Shown: one piece after another, positions 18,143 through 40,428 of the stretch | Layout: every line of letters begins with the position of its first letter | How positions within the stretch are numbered: position 1 is the first letter of the stretch | Assembly (NCBI GenBank): GCA_903890485.1 | Contig: CAITBM010000080.1 | Span: 1-40,428, forward strand | Length of the DNA: 40,428 nt | Origin: an uncultured Opitutaceae bacterium | GTDB lineage: Bacteria; Verrucomicrobiota; Verrucomicrobiia; Opitutales; Opitutaceae | Reading direction: 5' to 3' | The notes under the pieces: generated by a model | Databases searched by the model: none | The model's input: the letters and a program-made list of their open reading frames with translations, nothing else | What the model was told of the DNA's origin: nothing | Translations under genes and position numbers: made by a program

Positions 18143-18164
18143 GGTCCCTCTTTCGTGAGGGTGT

Positions 18165-18196
18165 CCCGATTTCTGCATGGATACACGCAGATCGGG
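18165..18196 (-). promoter_or_regulatory. Bulged hairpin in the leader of the secreted unknown
   Basis: CCCGAT (18165-18170) pairs with ATCGGG (18191-18196), and CTGC (18173-18176) pairs with GCAG (18187-18190). This gives ten base pairs with a two-base bulge and a ten-base loop, 23 nt before the start codon at 18142. No T-run follows on the minus strand. It could be a weak terminator of the gene upstream or a leader structure. Confidence 0.35.
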
Positions 18197-18270
18197 TTCG
18201 GACCTTCAAATCGATTGAGGCGCGATCCCCCCGAAAAGCTGTAAAGCTCCCGTGAAACTGGGGCGCTTAG

Positions 18271-18284
18271 AGGCCTTTCGGCCT
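18271..18284 (-). terminator. Short hairpin at the end of the binding-protein gene
   Basis: On the minus strand AGGCC-GAAA-GGCCT folds into a 5-bp stem capped by a GNRA tetraloop. It overlaps the stop codon at 18283-18285. There is no T-run, so Rho-independent termination is doubtful; it may simply stabilise the 3' end. Confidence 0.3.
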
Positions 18285-19428: not shown

Positions 19429-19579
19429 GGGATAAGCGGGAGCCCGGACCCTCTAAATCGGTCGGGATGGGCCCGACTTGAGCTCTTATGGGTCCGCGCT
19501 GAAGTCCGGGTGACTGTCACCAAGTCGGATTCATGCGTTGCCTGTTGCCCGGTGTTAGGGGAGAAAATAATCACCCGCC

Positions 19580-21914: not shown

Positions 21915-21962
21915 AGCGTGGAGCCGAAGGTACGGAGGCGGAACCCCGGCGTGCAACAGGGA

Positions 21963-24268: not shown

Positions 24269-24338
24269 GGAGCCCGGAGCGATCGTCCGGACCGCGAGCG
24301 CGGCTCCGGCGAGCGCGAGTGCGGCTAGAAGACTGTAC

Positions 24339-25031: not shown

Positions 25032-25035
25032 AGGA

Positions 25036-26397
25036 CTAGGCTATGAAATCCGAGGATTTGCAGGTTACAAGGCTCCGTGTCTCGACAGCCTCGATTGCCT
25101 TGAAGACGGCCATCTCGCTCTTAAAGGCCTCATCCGCCGGGCAGTTGAGCGTGCCGCGGCCGCGCACGGCGTTGAAGAAGTTCTCGAGGTGGGGCTGGTG
25201 GATCAGCTTTGAGAGGATCACAGGCAGGTAGTAGGCGGCGAGTTCCGCGGTTTCCCGCGCATCCACCTTGTCGTTTCCGGAAGAGCTGTCGTCGTCGGAT
25301 TTTGCCGGCGCCTTCTGGGCCGCGAGGAGGTGTCGGCTTATCCATTGGTCCCACGGCGGCGCAGCGGCTTCGCGGTTGATCTGCGTGTACTTGGGGTTTT
25401 CAGACATCCGGAGGGTTCCCTCCGTGCCCATGAACTGTTCGTAATAGCCGCCCCCGGCGCTTGTCGTGGTCTGCACCTGGTAGAAGGCGCGAGCGGTGCC
25501 CTCGGGCAGCTTGTACTCGTAGATGACCATCGCGTTGTCGAGCCACTCGTGGCCCGAATAGTAATCCCTGCCGCCCGACGCGATCACGGTGGAGGGGCTC
25601 ACGTCGAGAAACCAGTTGAGGATGTCGATCTGGTGCGCACCCAGGTCCGAAAGCGGGCCGCCCCCGCATTTCTTGAACCACCTCCAGTTGCGGAACTGGT
25701 GCATGTCCGAGTAGCCGTACTTCTCGAGAAGCTCCTTTGGCATTGCGGTGTGGTTGGGCCAGCCCAGGTCGGCGCTAACAGCCCTGTTCCACTGCGCGTT
25801 TGCCGCGGTGATTCGGCCCAGCAGGCGGGCCTCTCCAAGGAGCCTGTTCCTGGCAACCAAGTACCTTGGGTTGCTGCGGCGCTGGTGACCGATCTGCAGC
25901 AGTTTTCCCGTTTCCCTCATGGTCTGTACCATGGATCGAGCCCCCTCGATCGTGTTGGACATCATTTTCTCGCAATAGACGTGGTGACCGGCCCTTAGGC
26001 AGTCGTTCGTGATGGGAGCGTGCCAAAAATCGGGACAAGCAACGACGACAGCCTGCAGGTCCTTTTCCTTCTCGAGCATCTCCTTGTGGCTCTCGTACGC
26101 CCGGACCTCGAATCCGTTCTTTTTTAGGTAGCGCTGCCCATAGGTGCGGGCATAAGGCCAAATGTCGCAGATCGCGACGAAACGGACGCCTGGGATCTTG
26201 AGCATCGCGTCCATCAGGACCCGGCCCTGGGCGCCCAAGCCCACCAGCGCGATGTTGATGGAGTCGCCGGAATCGGCTTGGGCATAGGCCGAATGCAATG
26301 GCGCCAGGGCGATCGACAGGCCGGCGGCAGTCGCCGTCTTTAGGAACCGCCGGCGCCCGAGTCCGTCGGTCTTCACTTCAGGCTCGCGTGAACTCAT
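25036..26397 (-). CDS. Tat-exported Gfo/Idh/MocA family oxidoreductase (B)
   Basis: A 453-residue NAD(P)-dependent sugar oxidoreductase. A twin-arginine signal (GRRRFLKTATAAGLSIAL) opens the protein. The Rossmann domain starts NIALVGLGAQGRVLMDAM, with AVVVACPDFWHAPI and the dinucleotide-domain Lys in YCEKMMSNTIEGA, where the common EKP has become EKM. The C-terminal alpha/beta domain holds SDLGAHQIDILNWFLDVSPS, whose Asp and His are the usual catalytic positions. Family members oxidise or reduce sugar C-3 and similar positions; some exported ones keep the cofactor tightly bound. It overlaps the DoxX gene by ATGA. Substrate is unknown; the context suggests glycosides. Confidence 0.9.
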   Translation of the reverse strand: MSSREPEVKTDGLGRRRFLKTATAAGLSIALAPLHSAYAQADSGDSINIALVGLGAQGRVLMDAMLKIPGVRFVAICDIWPYARTYGQRYLKKNGFEVRAYESHKEMLEKEKDLQAVVVACPDFWHAPITNDCLRAGHHVYCEKMMSNTIEGARSMVQTMRETGKLLQIGHQRRSNPRYLVARNRLLGEARLLGRITAANAQWNRAVSADLGWPNHTAMPKELLEKYGYSDMHQFRNWRWFKKCGGGPLSDLGAHQIDILNWFLDVSPSTVIASGGRDYYSGHEWLDNAMVIYEYKLPEGTARAFYQVQTTTSAGGGYYEQFMGTEGTLRMSENPKYTQINREAAAPPWDQWISRHLLAAQKAPAKSDDDSSSGNDKVDARETAELAAYYLPVILSKLIHQPHLENFFNAVRGRGTLNCPADEAFKSEMAVFKAIEAVETRSLVTCKSSDFIA

Positions 26398-26912
26398 GAG
26401 CGGGTGAGGGCGAAGCGGTTATGCTTGGTCAGGCTCAGGGCGACGGCGATCAGGGCTACGTGGATGGCTAGCCAGGAGACGCCCCCATCCTGCTTGATGA
26501 GGATCAGCCCAAAGGTAAGGCTCACGTACAGGAGCCCCATCAGGAAGAGGCTCGCCCGGGTCCAGAGGCCGACGAGAACCGCGAGGCCCAATGCGATAAG
26601 CGCCCAGCCGAGGACGGCGTAATAGGGCGCCGTCATGAATGCGGGCAAGAGCGGCTCCTGGGAGAATTTCTCCTTCATGGAGTCGGGGATCGCGTGGTAG
26701 CTGTGGAGCGAGTAGAACTTCTGGGTCACTTCGACAACGGCGCCGCTCGAGTCGGGCTTCCCTGCAGCATCAAGCAGGGGAACCTGAAGGGTGCGGGTGT
26801 CCGAGAACTTCTCGAGTCCGGTAACGACCGCGCGAACACCGAGCCAGGCCCGAAGGAGCAGGAGGGCGAGCATCGATCCGCTGTCGCGGGTTTGGATTTG
26901 GGAGTCACTCAT
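26394..26912 (-). CDS. DoxX-like integral membrane protein
   Basis: A 172-residue protein with about four membrane helices (LALLLLRAWLGVRAVVTGLEK, YYAVLGWALIALGLAVLVGL, ASLFLMGLLYVSLTFGLILI, VSWLAIHVALIAVALSLT). This matches the DoxX/DoxD-like group, with an extra loop of about 60 residues between helices 1 and 2. DoxD-type proteins act as quinone-linked subunits of thiosulfate:quinone oxidoreductase; many relatives have no known role. Placed between a DUF1080 gene and an exported oxidoreductase, it could take electrons from that enzyme to the quinone pool, which is inference. ATG 26912 is preferred; 26945 would add 11 residues. Confidence 0.78.
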   Translation of the reverse strand: MSDSQIQTRDSGSMLALLLLRAWLGVRAVVTGLEKFSDTRTLQVPLLDAAGKPDSSGAVVEVTQKFYSLHSYHAIPDSMKEKFSQEPLLPAFMTAPYYAVLGWALIALGLAVLVGLWTRASLFLMGLLYVSLTFGLILIKQDGGVSWLAIHVALIAVALSLTKHNRFALTRS

Positions 26913-26945
26913 GATGGATGATTTCTTGGGTGTGCGGCGCGGCAA

Positions 26946-27656
26946 TTAGAGGCGGTCGACAACGATGTTCCTGAATTCGACCTTGTTGGTGTGGTACTGC
27001 AGGCCGATTCGCCCGGATCGCGCCATGTCCTTGTAGGCCTTTGAAAATTTGTTGGGTGTCCCATCCGGGTTCTTTCCGGCTTCCTTCCATTTGGTCAGAT
27101 CCATGTCCACAAGCTCCTCTCCGTTGAGCGTCACCTTGATGTGGTTCTCGATCGCGCTGATCGTGTAATGGTACCAGGTACCGGGAACAATCGCGATCTG
27201 GCGGTTCGGGGCCACGCAGTCGTAGACGGCTCCCACCAGATGTTTGTCAGGTGCATCTCCCTGGAGGATTTGCACCTCGATGGCTGAGTTAAGCCAGTCG
27301 GGGATGCTTGAACACCGCAGGAAGACGCCGCTGTTTGCCTTCTCCTGGCACCTGAAGTCCAGGTTAAGGACGAAGTCGCCGTAGGATTCCTTGGTCCAGA
27401 TATCGCCGCCACCTTTGGCGACCAAGGTGCCGTTTTCCCAGGCCCAGGACCCGGGCTTGAACTCGGCGTTTGAGAGGTCGGGCGCAAATACTGGGGCGGG
27501 TGCCGCCCAGCGTTTCGCGTCAGCGCCGTGGCCGGCGCCGATATCGTCGTGGACATTGGCCGTGAAGCCGGGAGCTGGGGCGGGGTTTCCCTGGGCGAGG
27601 GCGAGTGCCGCCGTAGCAAGGAACAGTCCGGGCCTAAGTAACGAGAGGGTTTTCAT
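26946..27656 (-). CDS. DUF1080 (3-keto-disaccharide hydrolase domain) secreted protein
   Basis: A 236-residue protein with a signal peptide (LLRPGLFLATAALALAQG). Its concanavalin-like DUF1080 domain shows GSWAWENGTLVAKGGGDIWT, SYGDFVLNLDFRCQEKANSG, VFLRCSS and the C-terminal GRIGLQYHTNKVEFRNIVV. Proteins of this domain were shown to hydrolyse or eliminate 3-keto-glycosides made by Gfo/Idh/MocA oxidoreductases. The gene lies between two such oxidoreductase genes, separated by 23 bp from A and 33 bp from DoxX, which fits that pathway well. The active-site residues cannot be named with certainty from sequence. Confidence 0.88.
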   Translation of the reverse strand: MKTLSLLRPGLFLATAALALAQGNPAPAPGFTANVHDDIGAGHGADAKRWAAPAPVFAPDLSNAEFKPGSWAWENGTLVAKGGGDIWTKESYGDFVLNLDFRCQEKANSGVFLRCSSIPDWLNSAIEVQILQGDAPDKHLVGAVYDCVAPNRQIAIVPGTWYHYTISAIENHIKVTLNGEELVDMDLTKWKEAGKNPDGTPNKFSKAYKDMARSGRIGLQYHTNKVEFRNIVVDRL

Positions 27657-27679
27657 GGGTAAGGAAGGTGGGTTATCTG

Positions 27680-29008
27680 TTAGAACAGGCGGTAGGACTT
27701 GGAGAGGAGGCGGTTGGCCTCAGGCAGGCCGACGCACACGCCTTTCACGGGATCCCAGTCGATCGGCTTTCCGGCGCGTATCGCCACATTTCCCAGGAGC
27801 ACGAGCTGCGAGAGGTCTCCGGAGTGGTCGACGATGTTCGAGCAGGGGGCGGGCCCGCCCTTGCATCCCGTGATCCAGTCCTGGTGGGAATTGGACTTCG
27901 GTATGCGTGCCAGCGTCTTCTTCGGGCGCTTGAACGTCGCCATCTTCGACTCCGGGATGAGACGCGGCGATTCGCCGTAGTCGCCCTCCGACAGGATGGC
28001 TCCCTTGTCGCCTCGATAGAGCGTGGCTCCCTGCGGGAGCTTCGCTCCGGGCCCGAGCTCTTCGGGCACGGGCGGAAGCTTTCCGCCGTCATACCAAGTG
28101 TAGGTAACCGGCGGCAGAGAACCGCGCTGGGGGAATTCATACTTAACGATGGACCACTTGGGCGCGACGAGTTCGGTCGCCCCTTCGCTTTCGGCGGATA
28201 CCCTGACGGGGCCGCGCAGGTTCAGGGCCCAGAACGGCGCGTCCATGCCGTGGCATCCCATGTCGCCGAGAGCCCCGCATCCATAGTCCCAGTAGCCGCG
28301 CCAATTGAATGGGGCGATCTGGGCGCTATACCCGCGGACGGGAGCCACTCCCAGCCAGAGATTCCAGTCCATTGTCGGAGGCACCACGGCGTCGTCGGCC
28401 GGCGGTGTCATTCCCTGGGGCCAGATGGGCCGGTTGGTCCACGTGTGGACTTCGCGCACGTTTCCGATCACGCCCGCTTCGACCCATTCCTTCAGCAGGC
28501 GCGTGCCTTCATTGCAGTGCCCCTGGTTGCCCATTTGCGTGACCACACCGGCCTTCAGGGCGGCCGCCTTGAGCGCCCGGACCTCGTCGATCGTGTGGCA
28601 CAAAGGCTTCTGAACGTAGACGTGTTTGCCCATCTCGATGGCCATCAGGGCCGCAGGAAAATGGGTGTGGTCGGGCGTCGTCACGATCACGGCGTCGATC
28701 TCGTCCGCCTTCTCGTTGAGCATCTGGCGGTAGTCCCGGTAGCGGGCTGCGTTCGGGAACATGCCGAAAATCTCGAGCCCCCTGTCGAAATCCACGTCGC
28801 AGATGGCGACGATATCCTCCGCCGAGCACGCCATGATGTCGCTGAAGGCCTTTCCGCCGGCGCCCACGCACGCGATACGCAGGCGCTTGTTCGGGGACAC
28901 CAGGTTTCTGAAGCGATCGGCCTCCGCGGCCCGAAGAGGGGGGCAACTGGCCGCGATCGCGGCGAGCGAGGCTGCTTGAAGGAAACGGCGACGACTGATT
29001 TGGGTCAT
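27680..29008 (-). CDS. Tat-exported Gfo/Idh/MocA family oxidoreductase (A)
   Basis: A 442-residue oxidoreductase and probable first gene of the keto-sugar operon. The Tat signal is SRRRFLQAASLAAIAAS at residues 5-21. The Rossmann fold starts RIACVGAGGKAFSDIMAC, with VIVTTPDHTHFPAALMAI and YVQKPLCHTIDEVRALK, where EKP has become QKP. The second domain contains GALGDMGCHGMDAPFWAL. The sequence belongs to the large exported subgroup common in Verrucomicrobiota, Planctomycetota and Bacteroidota. Together with oxidoreductase B it may supply the two half reactions of a keto-glycoside cycle. The 284-bp gap upstream should contain the promoter, but I cannot pick one out. Confidence 0.9.
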   Translation of the reverse strand: MTQISRRRFLQAASLAAIAASCPPLRAAEADRFRNLVSPNKRLRIACVGAGGKAFSDIMACSAEDIVAICDVDFDRGLEIFGMFPNAARYRDYRQMLNEKADEIDAVIVTTPDHTHFPAALMAIEMGKHVYVQKPLCHTIDEVRALKAAALKAGVVTQMGNQGHCNEGTRLLKEWVEAGVIGNVREVHTWTNRPIWPQGMTPPADDAVVPPTMDWNLWLGVAPVRGYSAQIAPFNWRGYWDYGCGALGDMGCHGMDAPFWALNLRGPVRVSAESEGATELVAPKWSIVKYEFPQRGSLPPVTYTWYDGGKLPPVPEELGPGAKLPQGATLYRGDKGAILSEGDYGESPRLIPESKMATFKRPKKTLARIPKSNSHQDWITGCKGGPAPCSNIVDHSGDLSQLVLLGNVAIRAGKPIDWDPVKGVCVGLPEANRLLSKSYRLF

Positions 29009-29292
29009 GGGGTGTTTTGTTTTCTGATGTTAGAGAAGATCAGGAAAGGGGTGCAGGGTAGCTCTGGGTTCGGTCCGAATGCGCCAGGCGGGGTCTAACG
29101 GTTCCGAAGGTAGGAAGAAATACGACATCCAACGGATTCTTGCAAGTACAGCCTCCGTTTCGTGATCCCGTTTAACTGCCCCCATGCACCCTATTAGATT
29201 TGCAAGCGAGAGCCGGCTGGGCGTTTGGTTCTCGCGACTCGCCTGCGCGCCTGCCTTCCAATTGGGCGTGCGTTCCGAGTCTGGCCGTGGAC

Positions 29293-30069
29293 TCAACGTT
29301 GGGGGCCGAGGCGGCGCGCCGCCAGTTTCGCCAAGCCCGCGAGCATTCCGGGTCCGTTTCGCCAGGCGCTTACCTTCCCACCCGGCTGGTCCGACCAGGC
29401 GATGGGGAGGGTATTGACCGCGATTCCCGCCGATCTGAGGGCGAGATAGAGCGCAGGATCGAAGCAGAAGCCGCAGCCGCCAACCTGGCGTTCAAGTTCC
29501 GGGAGCGCCCTGCCTGGGATAACCTTGAACCCGCATTGGAAGTCGATCGCCGGGGCGTGCAGGGCCAGGCCCGCCAGGGTCGAGAACATCCTGCTCAATG
29601 CCAGCTTGGACCAAGTCCTCCGCACTCGCAGCGGACCGGAGCGCGCGCGAACCGCAAAGTAGGAAGCAGCTTGGGCCGGATCGCGGTCCCTGATTTCGCC
29701 CAACACCCGCCGGACCTCAGAAGCGTTTGTCGAACCGTCGGCGTCGGCAAATGCTTTCCAGAGCGCCGGCGTTGACCGCCATCCCTCGAGTATCGCATCG
29801 CCCTTCTTTCCGTTTTTGGGGAGCAGAAGGGGTGCCAAGACCCTGCAGTTGCCTCTCTGGCCCGGAAAACAAGCCGCGCAGAGTTCACTCTGGTCCCCCG
29901 CTGGGGATCCGTCGTCGACAACAAGGATGTCCGTTCTGAAGGGCGCGGACTCCAGTGCTTGCACCAGGGATGCCAAGTACGGGGGAAGCCTATCCGCGTC
30001 GCGGTACGACGGCAGCACCAGCAGAAATTCGGGGATTTCTTGGGTTGAGTTGGGTGACGGGGGACTCAT
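29293..30069 (-). CDS. Family 2 glycosyltransferase
   Basis: A 258-residue GT-A glycosyltransferase resembling the dolichyl-phosphate/polyprenyl-phosphate hexose synthase branch. The N-terminal FLLVLPSYRDADRLPPYL and ILVVDDGSPAGDQSELC form the nucleotide-sugar site, and FADADGSTNASEV carries the DxD metal motif. KNGKKGDAILEGWR and APAIDFQCGFKVIPG match the acceptor-side region. It has no C-terminal membrane anchor, unlike many relatives, so it probably acts at the inner face of the membrane. Donor and lipid acceptor are not readable. The 284-bp gap on its left to oxidoreductase A holds no supportable gene. Confidence 0.82.
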   Translation of the reverse strand: MSPPSPNSTQEIPEFLLVLPSYRDADRLPPYLASLVQALESAPFRTDILVVDDGSPAGDQSELCAACFPGQRGNCRVLAPLLLPKNGKKGDAILEGWRSTPALWKAFADADGSTNASEVRRVLGEIRDRDPAQAASYFAVRARSGPLRVRRTWSKLALSRMFSTLAGLALHAPAIDFQCGFKVIPGRALPELERQVGGCGFCFDPALYLALRSAGIAVNTLPIAWSDQPGGKVSAWRNGPGMLAGLAKLAARRLGPQR

Positions 30070-30266
30070 CGCGGTTCTGGGCCTTTACCGAGCCCGCGCG
30101 GGGCTTAGTCAAGGGAGCATGAGGTGCTCAAATGCATCTCCACGACGGAGGGCGCTTGGTGCCGGGTAAGGGATTCATCTAGTCGTCCGCATATCCTCAA
30201 AACGTATTTTCTCCCAGACGGGGTCCCGGAGTCCGGCTTTGCTCCCAAAATGGGGGGTGTTCCACG

Positions 30267-31406
30267 CTAGTCCACTCCCAGGCAGGTCTCAGTCAAGCGA
30301 GCCGTCTGCACCCAGGCGTGGTCGGGCGGCACCGTGCGTTTGCGGCCCGCGACCTTTTCGAGCGCCACGGGCACACATTCGTTCCCCTTCAAAGCGACCA
30401 TCACGTTGTTTCGCCCCTTGAGGATCAACTCGACGGCCTTGGTGCCGAACCTCGTGCAGAGGAGCCGGTCAAATGAGGTGGGTGTGCCGCCGCGCTGGAC
30501 GTGCCCAAGCGAGGTCACGCGGGCCTCGGTGCCTGTCAGGCTCTGCAGCTGGCGGGCGATGCGGCTGGCAACGGGCTCATGGACCAGGCGAATGCCCTCG
30601 GTGCCGGGAGCTGTGAACGCTTCGAGGTGCGAGGGGGCCTTGCGCAGCGCGCCCGACTTGCCGGAGCCTTCCCTTGCCGCGGCCTCGTCCACCGAGACAA
30701 TCCCTTCTGCAACCGCCACGATCGAAAAGCGTTTTCCGGCCTTGTGCCTCCGGGAAAGGTGGCGCGCCACGGCTGCCAGATCGTAGGGAATCTCGGGGAT
30801 CAGGATCACGTCGGCACCCCCGGCGATGCCGGCACCCAGGCAAAGCCAACCCGCGTCGTGCCCCATGATTTCGCAGACGATGATCCTCTGGTGGCTGGTG
30901 GCCGTCGTGTGGAGCCGGTCGATCGCCTCCGTTGCGATGGCCATGGCCGAGTCAAATCCGAAGGTGATGTCAGTTTCGGCGACGTCGTTGTCGATGGTCT
31001 TTGGGAGCGTCAGGACGTTGATGCCCCCGTTCTGGCTGAGTGCCAACGCCGACTTCTGGGTGCCGTTGCCGCCAAGGCACACGAGGCAATCAAGCTTAAG
31101 CCTGTTGTAGGTGCGGACGGCTTCGGCGGTCATGTCCACCGTCTTTCCCCCGACCTTCATCTTGTGCGGCCTGTCTCTGCTGCTGCCAAGGAACGTTCCT
31201 CCCTGGGTCAGGATTCCGCTCACCAGCGGGTTGTCGATCAGCAGGGTTCGGTTCTCCACGAGGCCCCGGAAGCCATCGCGTATCCCGACCACGGTCATGC
31301 CGTAGTGCATGGCGGCTTTGGAAACCCCGCGAATGGCGGCGTTTAATCCTGGGCAGTCACCGCCTGCGGTGAGAATGCCGATCCTTTGGGTCGATTTCGG
31401 GGGCAT
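30267..31406 (-). CDS. pfkA: 6-phosphofructokinase, G104/K124 (group III-like) type
   Basis: A 379-residue phosphofructokinase; it phosphorylates fructose 6-phosphate in glycolysis. The N-terminal phosphate-donor loop is [29 protein letters not shown] keeps Gly at the position equal to E. coli residue 104, while [20 protein letters not shown] has Lys at the position equal to 124, together with the catalytic TIDND Asp. That pair is typical of atypical ATP enzymes, not of pyrophosphate enzymes (Asp104/Lys124). EIMGHDAGW and [16 protein letters not shown] complete the substrate site. Length and motifs indicate an intact enzyme. Phosphate donor use should be tested. Confidence 0.93.
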
Positions 31407-31492
31407 GGGGTGGGGGAATTCCTGCGCGGCTGGGCGAAAAGAACGCTAGTGGCGCCGCTGCCCGTTTTCGAGAGGGATTTTTGCCCCCTTTG

Positions 31493-32197
31493 TTACAAGT
31501 CGGTTCGGGCGGAAAGGGAAGCCGCGGCAAGGGCGGCGTGAAGGGGGCACGTGCCAGTGTCGACGGCGCGCCCGCTGCGGTAGCCGGACAAGAGCTGAAG
31601 CGATCGTTGGACGAGCATCCGCCTCACGGCCCGGCGCCGCCCCCGCACCCTTGGGATGACCATGTCGTCGTATGCCGTGGTCTGGTGGCGCATCCAGGCC
31701 AGGGTCGCGGCCGCGGCGCGTTCGCCGATGGGAATCCGCTCGGTCCTGGCCACCGTGCCGCTTCCCACCGGGACGGCGTGGGCTGTAACCCGGTCCGCCA
31801 GGCGCTCGGCCTGCGCGAGGTGGCAGGGATGGAAGCCAAGGTAGTCGAGGACGGCATCCCGGAAGTCCTTCGTGTAGGATTCCTGGGTCGCCGCGCGGCG
31901 CCTGCGCCCGGCCTCTAGCTTCTTCTGGTAGGAGGGGGCCTCGCGTTCGGAGAGGAGCTCGGCCCGCAAGGCCTCGATCCGGTCCGCCGGAGCCCAGATG
32001 CCCCGGGAGAACCTCTTGCGCCCTCTGAGCTCGATCACGGTCAGTGAGGGTCCATCCCTCTTGATCCGCAGGCTGAGGGCTGCGTCTCCTGGGGGCAGCA
32101 AGTCCCAGTGTGAGGGCACCTTCTCGACGACTCCGTATTCGTTCAACACGTGGCGTGGGAAGGCGCTGGGCCGGACTTCGCGGGTCTTGATAAGCAT
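31493..32197 (-). CDS. DUF2293 domain-containing protein
   Basis: A 234-residue protein of unknown function. After an N-terminal part with SHWDLLPPGDAALSLRIKRD and RFSRGIWAPADRIEALRAE comes the conserved DUF2293 block: FHPCHLAQAERLADRVTAHA, GSGTVARTERIPIGERA, AWMRHQTTAYDDMVIPRVRG, RRRAVRRMLVQRSLQLL. The domain is basic and helical, which would suit nucleic-acid contact, but this is a guess. I chose ATG 32197; the frame continues upstream, yet that portion is antisense to the S4 gene and looks non-homologous. It is divergent from the S4-domain gene. Confidence 0.8.
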   Translation of the reverse strand: MLIKTREVRPSAFPRHVLNEYGVVEKVPSHWDLLPPGDAALSLRIKRDGPSLTVIELRGRKRFSRGIWAPADRIEALRAELLSEREAPSYQKKLEAGRRRRAATQESYTKDFRDAVLDYLGFHPCHLAQAERLADRVTAHAVPVGSGTVARTERIPIGERAAAATLAWMRHQTTAYDDMVIPRVRGRRRAVRRMLVQRSLQLLSGYRSGRAVDTGTCPLHAALAAASLSARTDL

Positions 32198-32315
32198 CGA
32201 GGAGGTGGGAACGGCACATCCGACCCCCGGGTCAAAGACAAGCACTGAAGATCTTTTTCGTAGGGGCCCCACAGGGGGATGGACGCGGACCGGGCGGGTG
32301 CTAGGATCCCCGGCC

Positions 32316-32549
32316 ATGACGCGTCCCAATGCAGGCGAGGCCAGGTCAGTCCGGGTAACCGAGATGCCGATCGAACTGTGCCAGTTCATCAAATTCGGCG
32401 GCCTGTCTCCAAGCGGGGGCGAGGCCAAGGTCGCGATAAGCGAGGGTCGGGTTCTCCTGAACGGCGCCGTCGAGACCCGAAAGCGCAAGAAGCTGGCCGC
32501 GGGCGACCGAGTCACTTTTGCGGGCGAAACCATCGTCGTGGACGTGTAG
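32316..32549 (+). CDS. Small S4-domain RNA-binding protein (YbcJ-like)
   Basis: A 77-residue protein consisting of one S4 domain. Family features are PIELCQFIKFGGLSPSGGEA, KVAISEGRVLLNGAVETRK and GDRVTFAGETIVV. Small proteins of this type bind structured RNA and are linked with ribosome assembly or rRNA handling. The ATG at 32316 was taken; an internal ATG at 32364 would trim 16 residues and still leave the whole domain. The 118 bp between it and the divergent DUF2293 gene should carry both promoters. Confidence 0.85.
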   Translation: MTRPNAGEARSVRVTEMPIELCQFIKFGGLSPSGGEAKVAISEGRVLLNGAVETRKRKKLAAGDRVTFAGETIVVDV

Positions 32550-32598
32550 CGGATAACTTAACTCGTATTGGCTCGGGCAGCACTCTATCTACGAGGCC

Positions 32599-33255
32599 AT
32601 GCCCCAGGACCCCAACGCCCAGTTTGACCAGTCTGTGATGGAGATGATCGAGCACAGCCCCATCGGGGCTGTGCCCCACACGACGAGTTACGTCGAGTCC
32701 CTGAAGCGCCTCTACGATGCGCACCAGGTCTACTCCAGCGCGGACCACAAGGGCGGGCATGTCACCGCTCGCTCGCTCTCGGGTCAGCCATCCTTCATGG
32801 CGGGAAACATCGACGCGCTTGCCGCAGGATCGATCGAGTCCGGGGCCCTCGAGCCCAATTCTGCCGTCTTCGATCGCTATGTCGCTTGGCTGCCCCAGGC
32901 GAGCCGAGCCAAGGCCGAGGCATTTCGCCTGAAGGTAACGGGGAAACCCGTGCATCACCGCAAGCACCACAGCGGCGATGCGCCCGTCCACCACGACCCG
33001 GTCCATTCGCTCTTTCTGGTGGCGGGCGCCGGGCCGCACCACGGGCTGCCCGGAAATTACCTTTACGGATCGGTCTTCGAGGTTGGCGGTTCGCCTTCAA
33101 GCGGATGGGCGGTCCACCTTCATGACTGCGATGACGGAGCCTCGTTTTTCCAGGCCCCTGACATGCGGACCGCGCTTTCAAAGGTCCATGAACTGATCGA
33201 TACGGCTCCGTTTCACCTGAGCGAACTCGAGGATTTCGGGTTCAAGGCGATCTAG
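32599..33255 (+). CDS. Uncharacterised His-rich protein
   Basis: A 218-residue protein without signal peptide or membrane segment. I do not recognise a family. The N-terminal half is mixed helical (TSYVESLKRLYDAHQVYSSA). A central histidine-rich stretch (KPVHHRKHHSGDAPVHHDPV) leads into HSLFLVAGAGPHHGLPGNYL, then YGSVFEVGG and WAVHLHDCDDGASFF. The alternating strands and glycine-rich turns at the end look like a small beta-fold that could bind metal through its many His residues; that is inference. It lies 49 bp after the S4 gene and 42 bp before YjdM on the same strand, so the three may be cotranscribed. Length and codon use fit a real gene. Confidence 0.75.
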   Translation: MPQDPNAQFDQSVMEMIEHSPIGAVPHTTSYVESLKRLYDAHQVYSSADHKGGHVTARSLSGQPSFMAGNIDALAAGSIESGALEPNSAVFDRYVAWLPQASRAKAEAFRLKVTGKPVHHRKHHSGDAPVHHDPVHSLFLVAGAGPHHGLPGNYLYGSVFEVGGSPSSGWAVHLHDCDDGASFFQAPDMRTALSKVHELIDTAPFHLSELEDFGFKAI

Positions 33256-33297
33256 AGTTGGAATTCGGCAGCCCTCGAAGGCAGATTTTCCCCCTTT

Positions 33298-33624
33298 ATG
33301 ACCCGAAATGCCTGCCCGGCTTGCACACTTGAGGACGTCCTCAGCCATGACGACCACTGGGAATGTGCCACATGCGGACACGAATGGCCCAAGGAGGCGG
33401 CCGCCGAGGCGGCACGCATCGTCAAGGATCCCCACGGAAACACTCTGGCCGACGGCGACACCGTCGCCCTGATCAAGGACCTTAAGCTTGGGGGCGGCTC
33501 GCAGGTGCTCAAATCTGGCACCAAGGCGAAGAACATTCGACTCGTTGATGGCGACCACGAGATCGATTGCCGGATCGAAGGGGTTTCGATCGCCCTAAAG
33601 GCCTGCTTCGTGAAAAAGGCCTAG
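33298..33624 (+). CDS. yjdM: YjdM/PhnA family zinc-ribbon protein
   Basis: A 108-residue protein of the YjdM (PhnA-like) family. The N-terminal zinc ribbon has two Cys pairs (CPAC and CATC, about 20 residues apart in NACPACTLEDV and WECATCGHEW). The C-terminal SH3-like domain reads VKDPHGNTLADGDTVALIKD, then LKSGTKAKNIRLVDGDHEID and IALKACFVKK. The function is not established; the old link with phosphonate breakdown is not supported by its neighbours here. It ends 22 bp from the convergent rlmN stop with a strong hairpin between. Confidence 0.92.
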   Translation: MTRNACPACTLEDVLSHDDHWECATCGHEWPKEAAAEAARIVKDPHGNTLADGDTVALIKDLKLGGGSQVLKSGTKAKNIRLVDGDHEIDCRIEGVSIALKACFVKKA

Positions 33625-33641
33625 CGCCCGCTATGCGGGCG
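33625..33641. terminator. Bidirectional terminator-like hairpin between yjdM and rlmN
   Basis: CGCCCGC (33625-33631), loop TAT and GCGGGCG (33635-33641) form a perfect 7-bp GC stem exactly between two convergent stop codons. No T-run follows on the plus strand beyond a G-rich stretch. The position makes a terminator role likely. Confidence 0.5.
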
Positions 33642-33646
33642 GGGGT

Positions 33647-34735
33647 TCATTGAACGGCCCCTGCGCGCCGCCGAAGCTGCCCACAGGCTGCGTCAATGTC
33701 GGGACCGCGCGATCTCCGGATGTGGGCCACGACACCGCGCTCCCTGAGGATCGAAAGGAAGGTGTCGGTCGCCTGCTCGGTTGAGGGCGCATAGGTTTCC
33801 CCGCGAAGGCTCAGGCCCGTCGGGTTGTAGCTCAAGAGGTTCACGTGCATGCGCCTTCCGCCAACCAATGCAGCCAATTGCCTCGCCTGGTCGGGCGAAT
33901 CGTTCACCTCCTTCAGAAGGCAATACTGGATCGAAACGGGGCGTGCCGTCCGCGCCTGGTAGCGATCGGCAGCAGAAAGGATATCATCGACCCCGAATCG
34001 GCGTCCGGTTGGCAAGAGCCTGGCCCGGGTAGCATCGTCGGGCGCATGAAGGGACACGGCCAGGTGAACGTTTAGCCCCGATTGGGCCAGGGCGTCGATT
34101 CCTTGGACGATGCCGACGGTGGACACGGTGACCTGCCTGAAGCCCAGGGCCCCGGTCGCATTGTCCGCAATCCTTGAGATCGCAGCACACACGCTCTCTA
34201 GGTTGAGCATGGGCTCGCCCATGCCCATGAAGACGAGGGTCTGCAGTTTTCGCTTCACGAGGCCGGCTTCATGCCTGAGGGCAAGAAACTGCTCCACCAT
34301 CTCCGCTGGGGTGAGGTTGCGTTCGAACCCTGATTTCGTCGTGGCGCAGAAGTCGCAGCCCATGGCGCAGCCAACCTGCGACGAGATGCATCCTGCAGCC
34401 CGGTCTTCCCTGTAGTCGGGCATCAGGACGGACTCCACGGTCCGGGAGTCCCCCAGGCGCAACAGCAGCTTCGTTGTCCCGTCCCCGGAAACCCTTCGCG
34501 ACAGGATGGCGGACTGCCGGCGCTCCCGGTGCTCTGCCAGGCGCCTCGCGAGCTCCGGCGGGAAGCTTCGCCCGTTGGGAACCCCGGCGTGGTCGACCCT
34601 GTAGTGCGAACGCAGGAGCGGGCCGGCGTGTGACGCCTTGAAGCCCTCATTCTCGAGCTCTCTTTCGAGTGAGGCAACGGTATGCTCCGATAGATCCACG
34701 GGAGGGATCCACGCAGCAATTGTTCGCGATGCCAA
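33647..34735 (-). CDS. rlmN: Radical SAM 23S rRNA (adenine-C2)-methyltransferase RlmN family
   Basis: A 362-residue radical SAM enzyme that methylates C2 of A2503 in 23S rRNA (and A37 of some tRNAs). The iron-sulfur motif C-x3-C-x2-C is in SQVGCAMGCDFCATTKSGF, and GMGEPMLNLESV and HLAVSLHAPDDATRARL are typical. The C-terminal methyl-carrying Cys is present in DIDAACGQLRR. An N-terminal helical domain (ELENEGFKASHAGPLLRSHY) suits the accessory RNA-binding region. Several Verrucomicrobiota carry RlmN paralogs, and I cannot say which copy this is. It is divergent from the DUF3311-symporter pair. Confidence 0.92.
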   Translation of the reverse strand: MASRTIAAWIPPVDLSEHTVASLERELENEGFKASHAGPLLRSHYRVDHAGVPNGRSFPPELARRLAEHRERRQSAILSRRVSGDGTTKLLLRLGDSRTVESVLMPDYREDRAAGCISSQVGCAMGCDFCATTKSGFERNLTPAEMVEQFLALRHEAGLVKRKLQTLVFMGMGEPMLNLESVCAAISRIADNATGALGFRQVTVSTVGIVQGIDALAQSGLNVHLAVSLHAPDDATRARLLPTGRRFGVDDILSAADRYQARTARPVSIQYCLLKEVNDSPDQARQLAALVGGRRMHVNLLSYNPTGLSLRGETYAPSTEQATDTFLSILRERGVVAHIRRSRGPDIDAACGQLRRRAGAVQ

Positions 34736-34853
34736 GCCGCCAGCTCAGAGCGAAGGAGGTTCCTCTGGATGGGTTCTGCTTCGGCAAAGATGGCTGGGGG
34801 CAGGGTTGTTTCTTCTCGCTCCCATCCCGACATTGTTAAGGCTGCCCCCGCTC

Positions 34854-35048
34854 GTGAGGAAGCCCTCCATCGTGTCCCTGGTATTGGCCTTCATCCCGTT
34901 CTGCGGGTTGTGCTTCTCCGTCCCCATTTGGGACCGCCTCAACCCCCACGTGCTGGGACTGCCGTTCAACATGTTCTGGATCCTGGCGTGGGTCAGCGCG
35001 ACTCCGGTGCTCATGTCGATTGCTTTCAGGATCGAGAAACGCCGATGA
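34854..35048 (+). CDS. DUF3311 small membrane protein, partner of the symporter
   Basis: A roughly 64-residue protein with two membrane helices (VSLVLAFIPFCGLCFSV and FNMFWILAWVSATPVLMSIA) separated by PIWDRLNPHVLGLP, the DUF3311 signature. DUF3311 proteins are usually encoded just before a sodium:solute symporter and may form a complex with it, as with the Bacillus yhjC-yhjB pair. The start is uncertain: GTG 34854 gives the usual length, and TTG 34833 would add seven residues. The stop overlaps the symporter start as ATGA. Confidence 0.8.
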   Translation: MRKPSIVSLVLAFIPFCGLCFSVPIWDRLNPHVLGLPFNMFWILAWVSATPVLMSIAFRIEKRR

Positions 35049-36505
35049 GTCCGGGCGCCCTCGCATTATCCATCATATTTGGGATCGTCTTCGTGGGCTC
35101 GTGTGCCGGATTCCTGGCGGCCAAGAAACGCCAGCTCAACCTCGAGGAATGGGCTGTCGCGGGCCGGGGACTCGGCGTCATCCTGGTCTGGATCCTCATG
35201 GCGGGCGAGACGTTCACGGCGTTCTCGGTCCTCGGGATCAGCGGATGGATCTACTCCAAGGGCGGGCCCACCCTGTACGTGCTCGTCTACCTGACCCTAG
35301 GCCAAATCCTGTGCTTCTTCATAGGCCCCCCGCTGTGGGAATTCGGCCGGCGCCATGGGACGCAGACCATGGCCGATTTCTTTGGCAGGCGCTATGGAAG
35401 CACCTTCCTTGCGGGTTTCGTGGCGCTTGCAGGGGTCGTGTTCTTGGTGGTGTACCTGCAGCTGCAGGTCACCTCGCTCGGGATCATCGTGAATGTGGCC
35501 AGCTTTGAAAGCGTGGGCAGGACCCCGGCCATGTTCGTCGCCACCGTGGTCGTGGCCGCCTTTGTGCTGGTGAGCGGCGTGCGGGGCATCGTGTGGGTGA
35601 GTGTCCTCAAGGACTTCCTCCTCGTGTTCGTCGCGTTCCTCGTGGGCACCTGGATCCCCTACGCGCATTTCGGGGGAATCGGGGCCATGTTTGCCGCTGT
35701 CGAGCAGGCCAAGCCCGGTCACCTCACGATGCCGGGTGCCACGACCAACTACGGGCATTCCTGGTTCATCTCCACCGTGCTGATGAACTGCCTCATGTTC
35801 ACGTGGCCCCATTTCTTCGGCGGAGTGTTCACGGCGAAGAGCGGGGAAATCGTTCGCAAGAACACGATCCTGATGCCGCTCTACATGCTCCCGCTTGCGT
35901 TGATTATCTTCGCCGGTTGCGCCGCCATTCTCGTGGCGCCGGGGCTCAAGAACGGCGACTTGGCGCTCCTGACCGCCGTTCGCAAGACGTTTCCGCCCTG
36001 GATCCTGGGGGTGATCGGCGGGGCCGGCGCGCTCACCGCCATGGTGCCGGCCGCTGTCCAGATCCTGACGGCTTCGACCCTCCTCGCAAAGAACGTGTAC
36101 AGGCCGCTGTTCTCACCGGCGATGTCAGAGGACGACATTGGTCGCGTGGCCCGCGTGGCCGTCGTGGTGATCACCGCCGTGGCGCTTTATCTCTCGGTCC
36201 ACAGCTCTACGACTCTCGTGGGGCTTCTTCTCCTTGCCTATTCAGGGGTGGGCCAGTTCGCCCCGGGTATCGTGCTCGGCCTTTTTTCCACGCGTGTCAC
36301 CGCCCGAGGAATCCTCTGCGGCCTTGTGACTGGGCTATCGGTTACCGGCGTTCTTGTATTTACCCACAACGATCCTGTTTCGGGGATCAACGCAGGGCTT
36401 GTCGGCCTATTGGCCAATATAGCCGTCGTGGTTGGCGTTAGCCTGGTGTTCCCATTGCGGCCCGAGAACTCGATGGCCTCATCGGCCGAGCAGACGGGCG
36501 GCTGA
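35045..36505 (+). CDS. Sodium:solute symporter family (SSS) transporter
   Basis: A 486-residue polytopic permease of the SSS family (PanF/YhjB-like), using a sodium or proton gradient to import a solute. About 13 hydrophobic segments can be counted. Family-like features are KKRQLNLEEWAVAGRGLGVI, MAGETFTAFSVLGISGW, YGSTFLAGFVALAGVVFLVV and the central GAGALTAMVPAAVQILTAST. LLAYSGVGQFAPGIVLGLF near the end is also typical. ATG 35045 overlaps the DUF3311 stop, so both are one translation unit. Substrate is unknown; organic acids or nucleobase-like compounds are common for relatives. Confidence 0.88.
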   Translation: MSPGALALSIIFGIVFVGSCAGFLAAKKRQLNLEEWAVAGRGLGVILVWILMAGETFTAFSVLGISGWIYSKGGPTLYVLVYLTLGQILCFFIGPPLWEFGRRHGTQTMADFFGRRYGSTFLAGFVALAGVVFLVVYLQLQVTSLGIIVNVASFESVGRTPAMFVATVVVAAFVLVSGVRGIVWVSVLKDFLLVFVAFLVGTWIPYAHFGGIGAMFAAVEQAKPGHLTMPGATTNYGHSWFISTVLMNCLMFTWPHFFGGVFTAKSGEIVRKNTILMPLYMLPLALIIFAGCAAILVAPGLKNGDLALLTAVRKTFPPWILGVIGGAGALTAMVPAAVQILTASTLLAKNVYRPLFSPAMSEDDIGRVARVAVVVITAVALYLSVHSSTTLVGLLLLAYSGVGQFAPGIVLGLFSTRVTARGILCGLVTGLSVTGVLVFTHNDPVSGINAGLVGLLANIAVVVGVSLVFPLRPENSMASSAEQTGG

Positions 36506-36524: not shown

Positions 36525-37142
36525 CTAGGGCTCCACCTTGATCGCGAAATCCCGGCTGATTGCCGTCCCCTCTCGATTGTGGACCGTGGCGCTGTAGCGG
36601 CCCGAGTCCGCTTCGGTGAGGGAGCTCAGATGCAGCAGGGGATCGACGGCTCCCGGAACGGTGCGCCCGTCGTGAAGCCAGGCGAATTCAAGTGGCGGCG
36701 TGCCTGTTGCCTCGATCTTGAGGTCGAGGCTAGTCCCTGCCCTCGCCCTAGAAACGCTGGCCGGCTTCCGAGTGATTACGGGCACGGTTGCGCCCCTGAT
36801 TCCGAATTCGATCGCACTTGGAGCGACCTTGATTCCTCTCACCTCCGTCGCCGATCGGTGGCCGCGCAGGTCATCGATCGTGGCCACAAAACTCAGCGTC
36901 TCACCCGGGGCAAGGTCCGCAGGGGGGCGCCAATAGACACGGAATGGAGGGCGGTCCGCCGTTCCGATCAGCTCATACTGGCCGGGCCGTGACTCCCGTT
37001 TGAGGGCGAAGGTCACCTCGGCAAACCCGTCGCTCCCAGGGGCCTCGGCCAAAAGCTCATGCCGCCTGGGGATAACCTGTCCGTCATGCTCCTCGGCAGT
37101 GAACGAAAGCACCTCCCCTGGAGACAGCCCAACAAGACGCAC
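36525..37142 (-). pseudogene. Ig-domain protein C-terminal part, 5' truncated at a junction
   Basis: The frame encodes two beta-sandwich regions. The first is GETLSFVATIDDLRGHRSAT, preceded by PPFRVYWRPPADL; the second is an Ig-like domain with KPASVSRARAGTSLDLKIEA, PLEFAWLHDG and DSGRYSATVHNREG. GTG at 37142 is only the first usable start. The frame stays open upstream and still reads like the same protein (VVWQAVSSLDAAPAAPVV) to about 37195, so this is the tail of a larger secreted protein, perhaps a glycoside hydrolase. The catalytic part and signal peptide are missing from the window. Beyond about 37200 the sequence belongs to a plus-strand MFS gene. Confidence 0.65.
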
Positions 37143-37147
37143 GACGG

Positions 37148-37717
37148 GTGCCGCCGGTGCGGCGTCCAGGGATGAAACCGCCTGCCAGACGACCAGCTGC
37201 AGTGGGAACCGAGATATTCCACGGGGCTCCTGGATCCGAGGCCTACCAGCGGGGAGTTGAGTGGAGCGGCGTTTGCCTCTCCGCCTATAGCCTCATCGCG
37301 TTCTTGGTCTCTTTTGTCCTTGTCGGCTTGGCGCGCAAAGGCGTCGGTACGCGTACCCTTTACCGCACTGGTTTGATCTGCGCGGGCCTGGGACTCATCT
37401 CCACGTGCCTCTGGTCGAGGCAGGAACTGCTCCTGGTCTCGATGGTCGGTGTGGGCATCGGTTGGGCGACGATCCTGTCGATGCCTTATGCGATGCTCAC
37501 CGACGCCATACCCGCAGAAAAGATGGGGTTCTACATGGGCGTCTTTAACTTCTTCATCGTGCTGCCCCAGATCATTGCGGCAGCCGTTCTCGGGCCCGTG
37601 GTTAGGCACCTTTTTGCGGGCCATGCCATGCCTGCGGTTGTTACCGGCGGCGTCTCGCTACTGTTCGCGGCGGCCGCGCTATCGTTTGTTCCCCGAAACG
37701 ATCCCAGCCCGGCTTAG
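37148..37717 (+). pseudogene. MFS sugar transporter C-terminal fragment (SLC45/GPH-like), 5' truncated
   Basis: From about 37205 (GTEIFHGAPGSEAYQRGVEW) the frame encodes the second half of an MFS transporter of the sucrose/maltose type. About five membrane helices follow: CLSAYSLIAFLVSFVLVGLA, LICAGLGLIST, LVSMVGVGIGWATILSMPYA (with MLTDAIPAEKMGFYMGVFNF, a strong family signature), NFFIVLPQIIAAAVLGPVV and VTGGVSLLFAAAALSF. A full protein would be about 450 residues, so roughly 280 N-terminal residues are absent. Codons 37148-37204 are antisense to the Ig-domain gene. The 3' end overlaps the convergent AraC-type gene by 39 bp. It is probably not a working transporter as it stands. Confidence 0.75.
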
Positions 37718-38752
37718 GGCGACGGCGTCAAGAGGCGCCATCTTGTCAGGTACGATAGCTACCTTAGGCTGGCCGTGAGTGAAGTCGAGGCGGTCGAAAA
37801 ACACGGTCTTCGGCTGAAGTTCAACCTCGACGCGGTGGGCTTCGATCTGGGCACGGTATTCTTGGGGCGGCAGGCCCTTGTGCTGTTTGAATATCCGAGC
37901 AAAATAGGCTGGGTCTGCAAATCCCGCGGCATAGGCGATCTCCGAAATGTTCAGGGAGGTCGTCTCTAGGGCCAGGATGGCGCCCTCGATGCGGATGCGC
38001 TGGATGTAGTGGGTGAGCCTCTCCTTGGTCTCCGTGTGGAACAGATGGGAGAGATAATCGGCGGAACACCCGAGATGTTCCGCGATGTTCTGCACGCCAA
38101 GGTCCGGGTTTGCGAATTGTTCCCTGACAATGCATTTCGCGTGGAAGACCTTTCCGATGTCGCTATTGAGCTGCCCGGTGCCGGTCTCGACGATATTGCG
38201 GAAAAGGCCGATCAGGGCGATCGAAAGCCCCTTCAAAACGGAGTCACGCGCAGGTCCCTGGCTTTGGAAAGTTTGAGCCAGGCTGTTTGCCAGGGTAAGG
38301 AAGACGTCCAGGTTGGGGGCATCAAAAAATTCGATCACCTCGATGTCGGGATGATGGGGTCTCGCCTCGTAGGCGAAATGCAGGCTCAGAGTGTTGTTGT
38401 AAAAGCCGGCCACAAGGTTGCGGAAAGGCCTGGCGGCCTCGGGGTAGACGAGCTCGCCGTGGGGAACCCCCGCCGGAATGACGCAAAGCTCGTCGGGGCT
38501 GAGGCTGAAGGACTCCCTCGGAAACTGGAAGTCGGTGCGCCCCTGGAGCTGCAGGAACAGCTCGGGCCGGTAATGGTAGTGCATTCCCCGATGCTTGAGG
38601 GCGTGTTTCACCTCGTGGGGCACCTTGAGGCGCAACTTGTCCCTTTCGGCGAGCTCGATGGCCCGGTCAAATATATCCCGCATCTCCGCGCGATTGTGCG
38701 CGCTGAGCCGCTTGGCGGCAAAAATGCCTGTAGGCTCTCCTTTTTCAGCCAT
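37679..38752 (-). CDS. AraC family transcriptional regulator
   Basis: A 357-residue regulator. An N-terminal cupin-like sensor domain (MHYHYRPELFLQLQGRTDFQ and DELCVIPAGVPHGELVYPE) probably binds a sugar. It is followed by a helical linker and two helix-turn-helix units, NIAEHLGCSADYLSHLFHTE and ISEIAYAAGFADPAYFARIF. The order cupin then AraC HTH is typical of sugar-responsive activators. The C-terminal 50 or so residues after KQHKGLPPQEYRAQ are an extra tail. The target may be the neighbouring truncated transporter or Ig-domain gene, or genes to the right. An AT-rich stretch lies upstream. Confidence 0.9.
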   Translation of the reverse strand: MAEKGEPTGIFAAKRLSAHNRAEMRDIFDRAIELAERDKLRLKVPHEVKHALKHRGMHYHYRPELFLQLQGRTDFQFPRESFSLSPDELCVIPAGVPHGELVYPEAARPFRNLVAGFYNNTLSLHFAYEARPHHPDIEVIEFFDAPNLDVFLTLANSLAQTFQSQGPARDSVLKGLSIALIGLFRNIVETGTGQLNSDIGKVFHAKCIVREQFANPDLGVQNIAEHLGCSADYLSHLFHTETKERLTHYIQRIRIEGAILALETTSLNISEIAYAAGFADPAYFARIFKQHKGLPPQEYRAQIEAHRVEVELQPKTVFFDRLDFTHGQPKVAIVPDKMAPLDAVALSRAGIVSGNKR

Positions 38753-39044: not shown

Positions 39045-39806
39045 CTACCGCACCTTTCCGGCAGCATCCTCTAAGACGACATCGGTAAGAATGGCCGTGT
39101 CGGGGGTTGCGGGAAGGTGGGAGCAAAAGCCAATGCCGACGTAGAACGGGCCCTCCATGTGCAGATTCATCGACGGGCCGACCTGATGCATCGGCTCGCC
39201 ATGCTCGCTCAGGTAAAGCGTAAACTGGTCCCCGTGTTTTTCGATGCCCAGCCGCTTTGCGAGGGTGCCCGCTTTGGCCTCGATTCGGTGGTCTTCCTTG
39301 ATGTTGGCGCCCTTTTCCGGCCGCTCGGCCAGGTGGATCAACCCCGCCCCATGGAGGGCAACCATCGCCTCCTTAGAGTCGTCGTCGAGGTCCTGCCGGA
39401 TGACAAGCACGGCTTTTCGATCCCCGTAGCCGCCCGGGTTCGGAAACGACACGTCCGTGGCGAGCGAAACGTCCCCGGTGACCTTTCTCCAAAGATACGT
39501 GAACTCATCGCGCGTATACCAAATATTGTATCCGGCCGAGGTTATCGTATACGCGGCTGTGGAGCTGTTGAAGGTCGCGCTCCCCGGCACCACCGCTCCG
39601 CCGACGTCAGATTGGCCCTCAAAGGCGCCAATTGGGATCTGAAGATTTCTGGAGGTCCGATGGAAATTTGCCGGCGGTGGGACCTGTTGATGGGTGGCGG
39701 AACCGGGCTGGGCCCAGTCAGGAACATCGGGAGTTTGGGAGAAGAGCCCGTGGCGGGGGGTGCAAAAGCACAGGGCAATCAGAACGACAAAAGGTGGGCG
39801 TTTCAT
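39045..39806 (-). CDS. Secreted concanavalin-like domain protein
   Basis: A 253-residue protein with a signal peptide (FVVLIALCFCTPRHGLFSQ). The rest is a beta-sandwich of the type often annotated as 'biopolymer transporter Tol' or DUF1349-like in Opitutaceae: PIGAFEGQSDVGGAVVPGSA, TITSAGYNIWYTRDEFTYLW, GDVSLATDVSFPNPGGYGDR and KAVLVIRQDLDDDSKEAMVA. The fold is that of concanavalin-like lectins and laminarinase-type sandwiches. No catalytic pair can be named, so binding of a polysaccharide is the best guess. It is divergent from the FadL-like gene, with 232 bp between them. Confidence 0.72.
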   Translation of the reverse strand: MKRPPFVVLIALCFCTPRHGLFSQTPDVPDWAQPGSATHQQVPPPANFHRTSRNLQIPIGAFEGQSDVGGAVVPGSATFNSSTAAYTITSAGYNIWYTRDEFTYLWRKVTGDVSLATDVSFPNPGGYGDRKAVLVIRQDLDDDSKEAMVALHGAGLIHLAERPEKGANIKEDHRIEAKAGTLAKRLGIEKHGDQFTLYLSEHGEPMHQVGPSMNLHMEGPFYVGIGFCSHLPATPDTAILTDVVLEDAAGKVR

Positions 39807-40038
39807 GATGGGGTGGGGATGAGGAATCGACGCCTTGGCTTGAGGAAGGGCAACATCTTTCCTTGGACGCCGGGCTCGAGGTTTCAGGTTTCTTGAGAAA
39901 AGCCCGACAAGGCGATCCGTGGCGGTATCGTCATTATTAGGGCCTTTTGGATTCGGAATTTGTAGATATTTTGCTTCAATGCCTGCACTTTGATCGGGCC
40001 AGATGCTTCATTACCTTAATCCCAATCCCCCAAACCCC

Positions 40039-40305
40039 ATGTTCACCCCCAAGACTTCACCCGTTAGGGCACTGCTTACCGCCGCATTGGCCGCCCTTTG
40101 TGTTTCCCGACTTTTTGCCACCGACGGATATTTTGTTCAGGGCTTCGGCGCCGTAAATTCTTCCTTGGGCGGAGCCGCAACCGCCGGAAACTCCCAGGAT
40201 TTGATCGGCAGCATCTACAAGAACCCGGCAACGGGAATCCTGTTTGCGGATCGAACGGCGTCCGTGATTTTCGGAGACATTATCCCGAGCGCGCGGATCG
40301 ACTGA
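40039..40305 (+). pseudogene. FadL/OmpP1-like outer membrane protein, 3' cut off
   Basis: The start (ATG 40039) opens a signal peptide (VRALLTAALAALCVSRLFA). It is followed by the N-terminal hatch region of a FadL/TodX-type porin: GYFVQGFGAVNSSLGGAATA, DLIGSIYKNPATGILFADRT and ASVIFGDIIPSARI. Such porins are usually 400-500 residues and carry fatty acids or hydrophobic compounds across the outer membrane. Here the frame stops at TGA 40303-40305 after 88 codons, and the following bases no longer read as a barrel in any frame. The gene appears interrupted near 40300, perhaps by an inserted element. Confidence 0.7.
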
Positions 40306-40359
40306 CCGGACCGCATTTCTTGAGCCACCCCGAGTGAGAGTCTGGGCGGGTTGTTGATC

Positions 40360-40428
40360 TCAGTTCTGGTTGTGGTTGCTGGTGGGGACGAGCGCAAGCT
40401 CCAGGCGTAGGGAGGGCCCGGCTTGGCG
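40360..40428 (-). CDS. 3' end of an unidentified minus-strand gene, possibly a transposase (partial)
   Basis: An open minus-strand frame enters from the right edge and ends with TGA at 40360-40362 after 22 codons (RQAGPSLRLELALVPTSN near its end). The basic, compact tail and the position next to an interrupted gene would fit the end of an insertion-sequence transposase, with the element's end near 40302. I cannot name the family, and no terminal repeat or target duplication can be confirmed from what is visible. Confidence 0.3.
   Translation of the reverse strand, partial: RQAGPSLRLELALVPTSNHNQN

What the first reader, a model, noticed from the sequence alone, without database searches (positions are those of the whole stretch)
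37195..37208. Second head-to-head junction: Ig-domain tail against MFS transporter tail
The minus strand reads like one protein from 36525 up to about 37195 (VVWQAVSSLDAAPAAP). The plus strand reads an MFS sugar transporter from about 37205 (GTEIFHGAPGSEAY). About 280 N-terminal transporter residues and the N-terminal part of the Ig-domain protein are missing. The topology is the same as at 6790: two 3' parts pointing away from the join.
Basis: partly seen in the sequence, partly recalled or inferred. Interest (0 to 1): 0.6.

Follow-up and report, generated by a model that had tools for sequence, protein, structure and literature searches.

The report
Internal deletion in starch-use gene cluster
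A bacterium related to the Opitutaceae appears to have lost the middle of a starch-use gene cluster in one clean cut, which left the tail ends of an amylase gene and a sugar-transporter gene side by side; this is an ordinary kind of bacterial gene loss.

Summary
The junction is real in the assembled sequence, at 37199-37205. The minus strand keeps the last 226 residues (Ig-like tail) of a GH13 alpha-amylase; the plus strand keeps the last 172 residues of an MFS sugar transporter. They are not tails of unrelated loci. In six same-genus genomes with both genes on one contig, the genes have the same order and orientation, but the matching points lie 7.5-13.4 kb apart, with a TonB-dependent receptor and a GH77 4-alpha-glucanotransferase between them and an AraC regulator after the transporter. 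The window therefore lacks one internal piece of a starch/maltodextrin locus, including both divergent 5' ends. The bin shows no amylase catalytic part, no close transporter N-terminal half, no close receptor, and one GH77 gene, the non-locus copy. The two homologies overlap by 7 bp, as a short-repeat deletion would leave. The remnants have no stops and no sign of relaxed selection, so the cut is recent, or it is a strain variant or a library chimera; only reads can settle that. A second junction at 6783 looks alike. Ordinary gene loss; low interest.

The parts
36525..37205 (-). 3' remnant of a GH13 alpha-amylase gene (last 226 residues, Ig-like tail, and stop)
   Evidence: Ig Pfam matches; 51-59% identity to the tails of 852-1138-residue frames in 7 same-genus genomes; G005's full protein has the Alpha-amylase domain
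37199..37205 (.). join; 7 bp where both gene homologies hold (GCAGTGG), probably the short repeat at which the deletion happened
   Evidence: conserved transporter residues A-V-G begin at 37199 and conserved amylase residues P-L-Q begin at 37205 on the other strand; the codons before each in relatives are replaced in the window
37199..37717 (+). 3' remnant of an MFS sugar transporter gene (last 172 residues and stop)
   Evidence: MFS_1 match; 64-88% identity to longer frames in 7 same-genus genomes
37679..38752 (-). AraC-family regulator gene, full length, the right-hand end of the locus
   Evidence: HTH_18 and HTH_AraC; homologue next to the transporter in all 7 same-genus genomes compared
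34769..36505 (+). sodium:solute symporter gene, left flank (start codon uncertain)
   Evidence: SSF match; beside the amylase gene in G004 C364 too; not found by that comparison in the stretches of the other six genomes
39045..39806 (-). gene of unknown function, right flank
   Evidence: 75% identical gene after AraC in G004 C77; not found in the stretches of the other six genomes; no Pfam match

Best explanation
A recent internal deletion of a starch/maltodextrin-use locus. Shown: relatives carry, in one order, amylase (leftward), then TonB-dependent receptor, GH77 and MFS transporter (rightward), then AraC (leftward); the window has the two outer gene tails and AraC in the same order and orientation with nothing between the tails, and close copies of the missing genes were not found in its bin. 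Inferred: illegitimate, RecA-independent recombination at a short direct repeat of up to 7 bp removed about 7.5 to 13.4 kb, including the divergent promoter region and both 5' ends, so both tails are probably silent and the AraC gene has lost its neighbours and likely targets; this route of starch or maltodextrin use is lost. The size is estimated from relatives. That the deletion is in the chromosome of the cells, and not only in the sequenced DNA or assembly, is inferred.
For: Same order and orientation in 6 of 6 same-genus genomes with the locus on one contig, and consistent pieces on two contigs of G004, the genome with the most similar transporter and amylase tails (stretches). Distances between the matching points: 7,482, 7,672, 7,782, 7,799, 11,987 and 13,378 bp. 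In the bin: amylase query finds only the window's tail plus Ig-domain matches in other frames; transporter query finds the window's tail and one 31% match over residues 49-171; receptor's best match 36% over part; one GH77, whereas each of the 7 genomes with the locus has two. Homologies meet with a 7-bp overlap and no foreign base. G001, G009, G011 and G012 lack a transporter match and have one GH77, so the locus is patchy in the genus.
Against: No reads were available. The remnants are stop-free and show no relaxed selection, which a very recent deletion allows but which an artefact would also give. Two such joins in one 40-kb contig (6783 and 37199) is many for very recent deletions. The outer flanks are shared only with G004; in the other six genomes the symporter and the 39045-39806 gene were not found next to the locus. 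The bin is 97.0% complete, so absence from it is not proof.
Confidence: 0.83

Rival explanations
1. The join is a library or amplification chimera, or the assembler chose a minor deletion allele of a mixed population; most cells carry the intact locus.
For: Remnants look as if under selection until now; short complementary stretches are also typical of amplification chimeras, 90.9% of directly joined segments less than 10 kb apart having them (PMC1855051, passages); a second similar join lies at 6783.
Against: 85% of such chimeras are inverted (PMC1855051), this join is direct; the intact genes were not found elsewhere in the bin; a 7-bp overlap is too short for a false k-mer join (recalled). 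Window 14701-34700 runs along G004 contigs without another large break.
Confidence: 0.14
2. A rearrangement (inversion or translocation) split the locus and moved the 5' halves elsewhere in the genome.
For: Both tails end abruptly at one point, as a break would leave.
Against: No close 5' half of the amylase or the transporter, no close receptor and no locus-type GH77 in the bin; the tails keep the relative order and orientation of relatives.
Confidence: 0.01
3. The tails are kept for a function, for example as two short divergently transcribed genes.
For: Both frames are open past the join and replacing changes are not in excess.
Against: The parts of the frames beyond the join are reverse-strand readings of the other gene; the transporter tail holds 172 of 433-485 residues; the relatives' 5' ends and upstream regions are missing.
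Confidence: 0.02

Closest known systems
RecA-independent deletions between short repeats in reductive evolution, e.g. Streptococcus agalactiae ST260-261 (PMC3637634, passages seen)
   Same: long deletion with a short repeat at its ends, below the 23-27 nt that the paper gives for RecA-dependent recombination; whole functions lost
   Different: there many strains were compared; here one assembled genome, and the repeat is inferred from other species
Illegitimate recombination as a source of strain diversity in E. coli (PMC2884548, passages seen)
   Same: loss of a segment without a mobile element at the join
   Different: that study centres on small segments; here 7.5 kb or more
Chimeras of multiple displacement amplification (PMC1855051, passages seen)
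   Same: join at a short shared stretch between nearby segments
   Different: 85% of those are inverted; this join is direct, and no call says that this DNA was amplified
TonB-dependent maltodextrin uptake loci such as that of Caulobacter (recalled, no call)
   Same: outer-membrane receptor, inner-membrane MFS transporter, amylase and glucanotransferase genes together in the relatives
   Different: in the window only two tails and the AraC gene are left

Membership tests
Internal deletion relative to an ancestral locus | flanking parts in the order and orientation of intact relatives | tested here: met
   6 of 6 one-contig genomes, for amylase, transporter and AraC; outer flanks agree in G004 only
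Internal deletion relative to an ancestral locus | intervening genes absent from the genome | tested here: met
   in a bin estimated 97.0% complete
Internal deletion relative to an ancestral locus | reads across the join at normal depth | not testable with these tools
   no reads available
RecA-independent deletion at a short repeat | short direct repeat at both ends of the lost piece | tested here: inconclusive
   7-bp overlap of the two homologies, but the species' own intact sequence is unknown, so the true repeat may be shorter
IS-mediated deletion | insertion sequence or its end at the join | tested here: not met
   the two gene homologies meet and overlap, with no other base between
MDA chimera | usually inverted orientation of the joined segments | tested here: not met
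   direct orientation; 15% of chimeras in PMC1855051 are direct too, so this does not exclude one
Working starch/maltodextrin-use locus | amylase catalytic domain, receptor, GH77 and full transporter present | tested here: not met
   only tails and the AraC gene remain

The most novel reading that the evidence does not exclude
This lineage loses catabolic and signalling genes by a favoured kind of deletion that removes both 5' ends and the space between two divergent genes, leaving only untranscribed tails and so no truncated proteins; both junctions looked at in this contig (6783 and 37199) have this form.
Probability: 0.04. Interest if true: 0.4.

Novelty: new member of a known kind. Interest (0 to 1): 0.12.

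Why it matters
It would be a fresh loss of a starch-use locus in a genus where the locus is patchy (7 of 12 other same-genus genomes matched the transporter tail). It also shows that an odd join of two gene tails in an assembled genome can be read as a plain deletion once relatives are lined up. Little follows beyond that.

Tried and rejected
Rejected: join of unrelated loci (one locus in relatives); halves moved elsewhere in the bin; an insertion sequence at the join; the C69 GH77 being the missing one (it is the non-locus copy, found in 12 of 12 genomes). Dating by relaxed selection gave no signal (small counts, seven relatives per gene). NCBIfam gave for the transporter tail only matches far below its cut-offs. 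Paper searches. One search, for five parts of such a locus, listed one paper, which I did not open. No claim is made that this locus or its loss is absent from print.

Left out of counts: of the 80 loci only the titles were used, to name relatives; the gene order around L060-L135 was not examined. G025 and G028 have an amylase-tail match and a transporter match, but over 1 Mb apart (G025) or on different contigs (G028), and were not compared further. G007 (64% complete) was not. Extra transporter matches in several genomes were taken as paralogues by their lower identity. Window 11001-14700 was not compared with relatives. The list was cut by the tool.

Full report
Observation. The window is a whole contig (C80) of a 144-contig, 3,115,674-base bin estimated 97.03% complete and 2.08% contaminated. 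At 37199-37205 two gene tails meet. On the minus strand an Ig-domain frame ends at 36525; on the plus strand an MFS frame ends at 37717.

Relatives. The transporter tail was searched in 57 genomes, the window's own included: 17 match, among them 7 of the 12 other same-genus genomes (G002, G003, G004, G005, G006, G008, G010; 64-88% identity). G001, G007, G009, G011 and G012 have no match; G007 is only 64% complete. The Ig tail was searched in the same 57: matches over nearly the whole query at 51-59% are in the same 7, on the same contig as the transporter in 6. Two more genomes of the family (G025, G028) have such a match at 43-47%, but not near their transporter match.

Locus anatomy. In G005 the Ig-tailed protein is an alpha-amylase (Alpha-amylase E 2.6e-59); between it and the transporter lie a TonB-dependent receptor (Plug E 2e-16) and a 4-alpha-glucanotransferase (GH77, E 3.3e-157); after the transporter lies an AraC regulator. 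In G004 the receptor and GH77 match the same families. A comparison of eight stretches from the seven genomes shows, in the window's orientation, amylase leftward, receptor, GH77 and transporter rightward, AraC leftward, in 6 of 6 genomes with the locus on one contig. G002, G010 and G004 have one more gene (GDSL-like and TPR matches) beside the amylase on the receptor side; G008 has it on the other side. G004 has the locus on two contigs, C364 and C77, and shares the window's outer neighbours: the symporter beside the amylase and the 39045-39806 gene beyond AraC. In the other six genomes those neighbours were not found in the fetched stretches; in G002 and G005 the best symporter match is at another place.

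What the window lacks. The points that match the window's join lie 7,799 (G005), 7,672 (G003), 7,782 (G006), 7,482 (G008), 11,987 (G010) and 13,378 bp (G002) apart. In G004 the pieces up to the two contig ends add up to about 10 kb (my sum). So one internal piece of roughly 7.5-13.4 kb is gone. In the bin the amylase query finds the window's tail and five Ig-domain matches, none in the catalytic part; the transporter query finds the tail and one 31% match over residues 49-171, a distant transporter; the receptor query's best match is 36% over residues 18-222. GH77 occurs once (C69; 51% to the locus type). In one search the C69 protein was searched in 12 genomes: all 12 have that copy; the 7 with the locus have a second; G000, G001, G009, G011 and G012 do not.

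The join. The conserved transporter residues A-V-G begin at 37199 and the conserved amylase residues P-L-Q begin at 37205 on the other strand; the overlap is 7 bp, GCAGTGG. The codons that precede each in relatives are replaced. This fits a deletion at a short repeat; since the species' own intact sequence is unknown, the repeat may have been shorter. The junction at 6783-6785 has a similar form, two histidine-kinase tails whose homologies overlap by 3 bp; there the plus-strand side was compared with one relative only (G004 C263), and in G003 and G005 the flanks lie about 3.3-3.4 kb apart against 1.2 kb in the window.

Age. Changes seen only in the window are 21 silent and 4 replacing for the transporter tail (G004 14 and 5; G005 9 and 8), 24 and 27 for the amylase tail (G004 18 and 35; G005 12 and 26), and 41 and 6 for AraC (G004 32 and 10; G005 29 and 22). 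There is no sign of relaxed selection, so the cut is young, or variable in the population, or not in the cells at all. This is the main reason for leaving an artefact at about one in seven.

Artefact or not. A 7-bp overlap is too short for a false k-mer join (recalled), and the two sides being the two ends of one locus in proper orientation speaks for a deletion in the sequenced DNA. Amplification chimeras also use short shared stretches, but 85% of the 475 studied were inverted (PMC1855051, passages). Window 14701-34700 runs along G004 contigs C212, C237 and C201 without another large break; in G002, G003 and G005 the matches of this stretch are scattered over several contigs.

Precedents. 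Long deletions with short repeats, attributed to RecA-independent recombination, are described for Streptococcus agalactiae (PMC3637634, passages), and illegitimate recombination is held to explain much strain diversity in E. coli (PMC2884548, passages). Young pseudogenes are removed fast in Salmonella (PMC2916853, abstract). What is seen here fits these.

Names. 

Noticed in passing
6783-6785: Second junction of the same form: tails of two histidine-kinase genes pointing away from each other, homologies overlapping by 3 bp; probably another deletion.
   Followed up: partly
40003-40428: A gene start homologous to an OMPP1/FadL-type gene of G004 (L048:4494-6008) stops matching at 40302; 40303-40428 is 94% identical to C63:117392-117517, which overlaps the 3' end of a transposase frame with rve_3 and HTH_21 matches. 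Probably an insertion sequence in the gene, with the contig ending inside it.
   Followed up: partly
1-192: 94% identical, end to end and reversed, to C65:1-182; the stretch holds repeats of about 10 bp, so the two contigs are probably neighbours parted at a tandem repeat.
   Followed up: partly
37679-38752: The AraC gene next to the lost locus is full length, with changes mostly silent (41 to 6), though its neighbours are gone.
   Followed up: partly
L047:9936-12311, L046:9465-11849, L049:3290-5683, L045:86-2476: A protein with weak GDSL-like and TPR matches sits beside the amylase gene in four relatives, on either side of it; its role is unknown.
   Followed up: no
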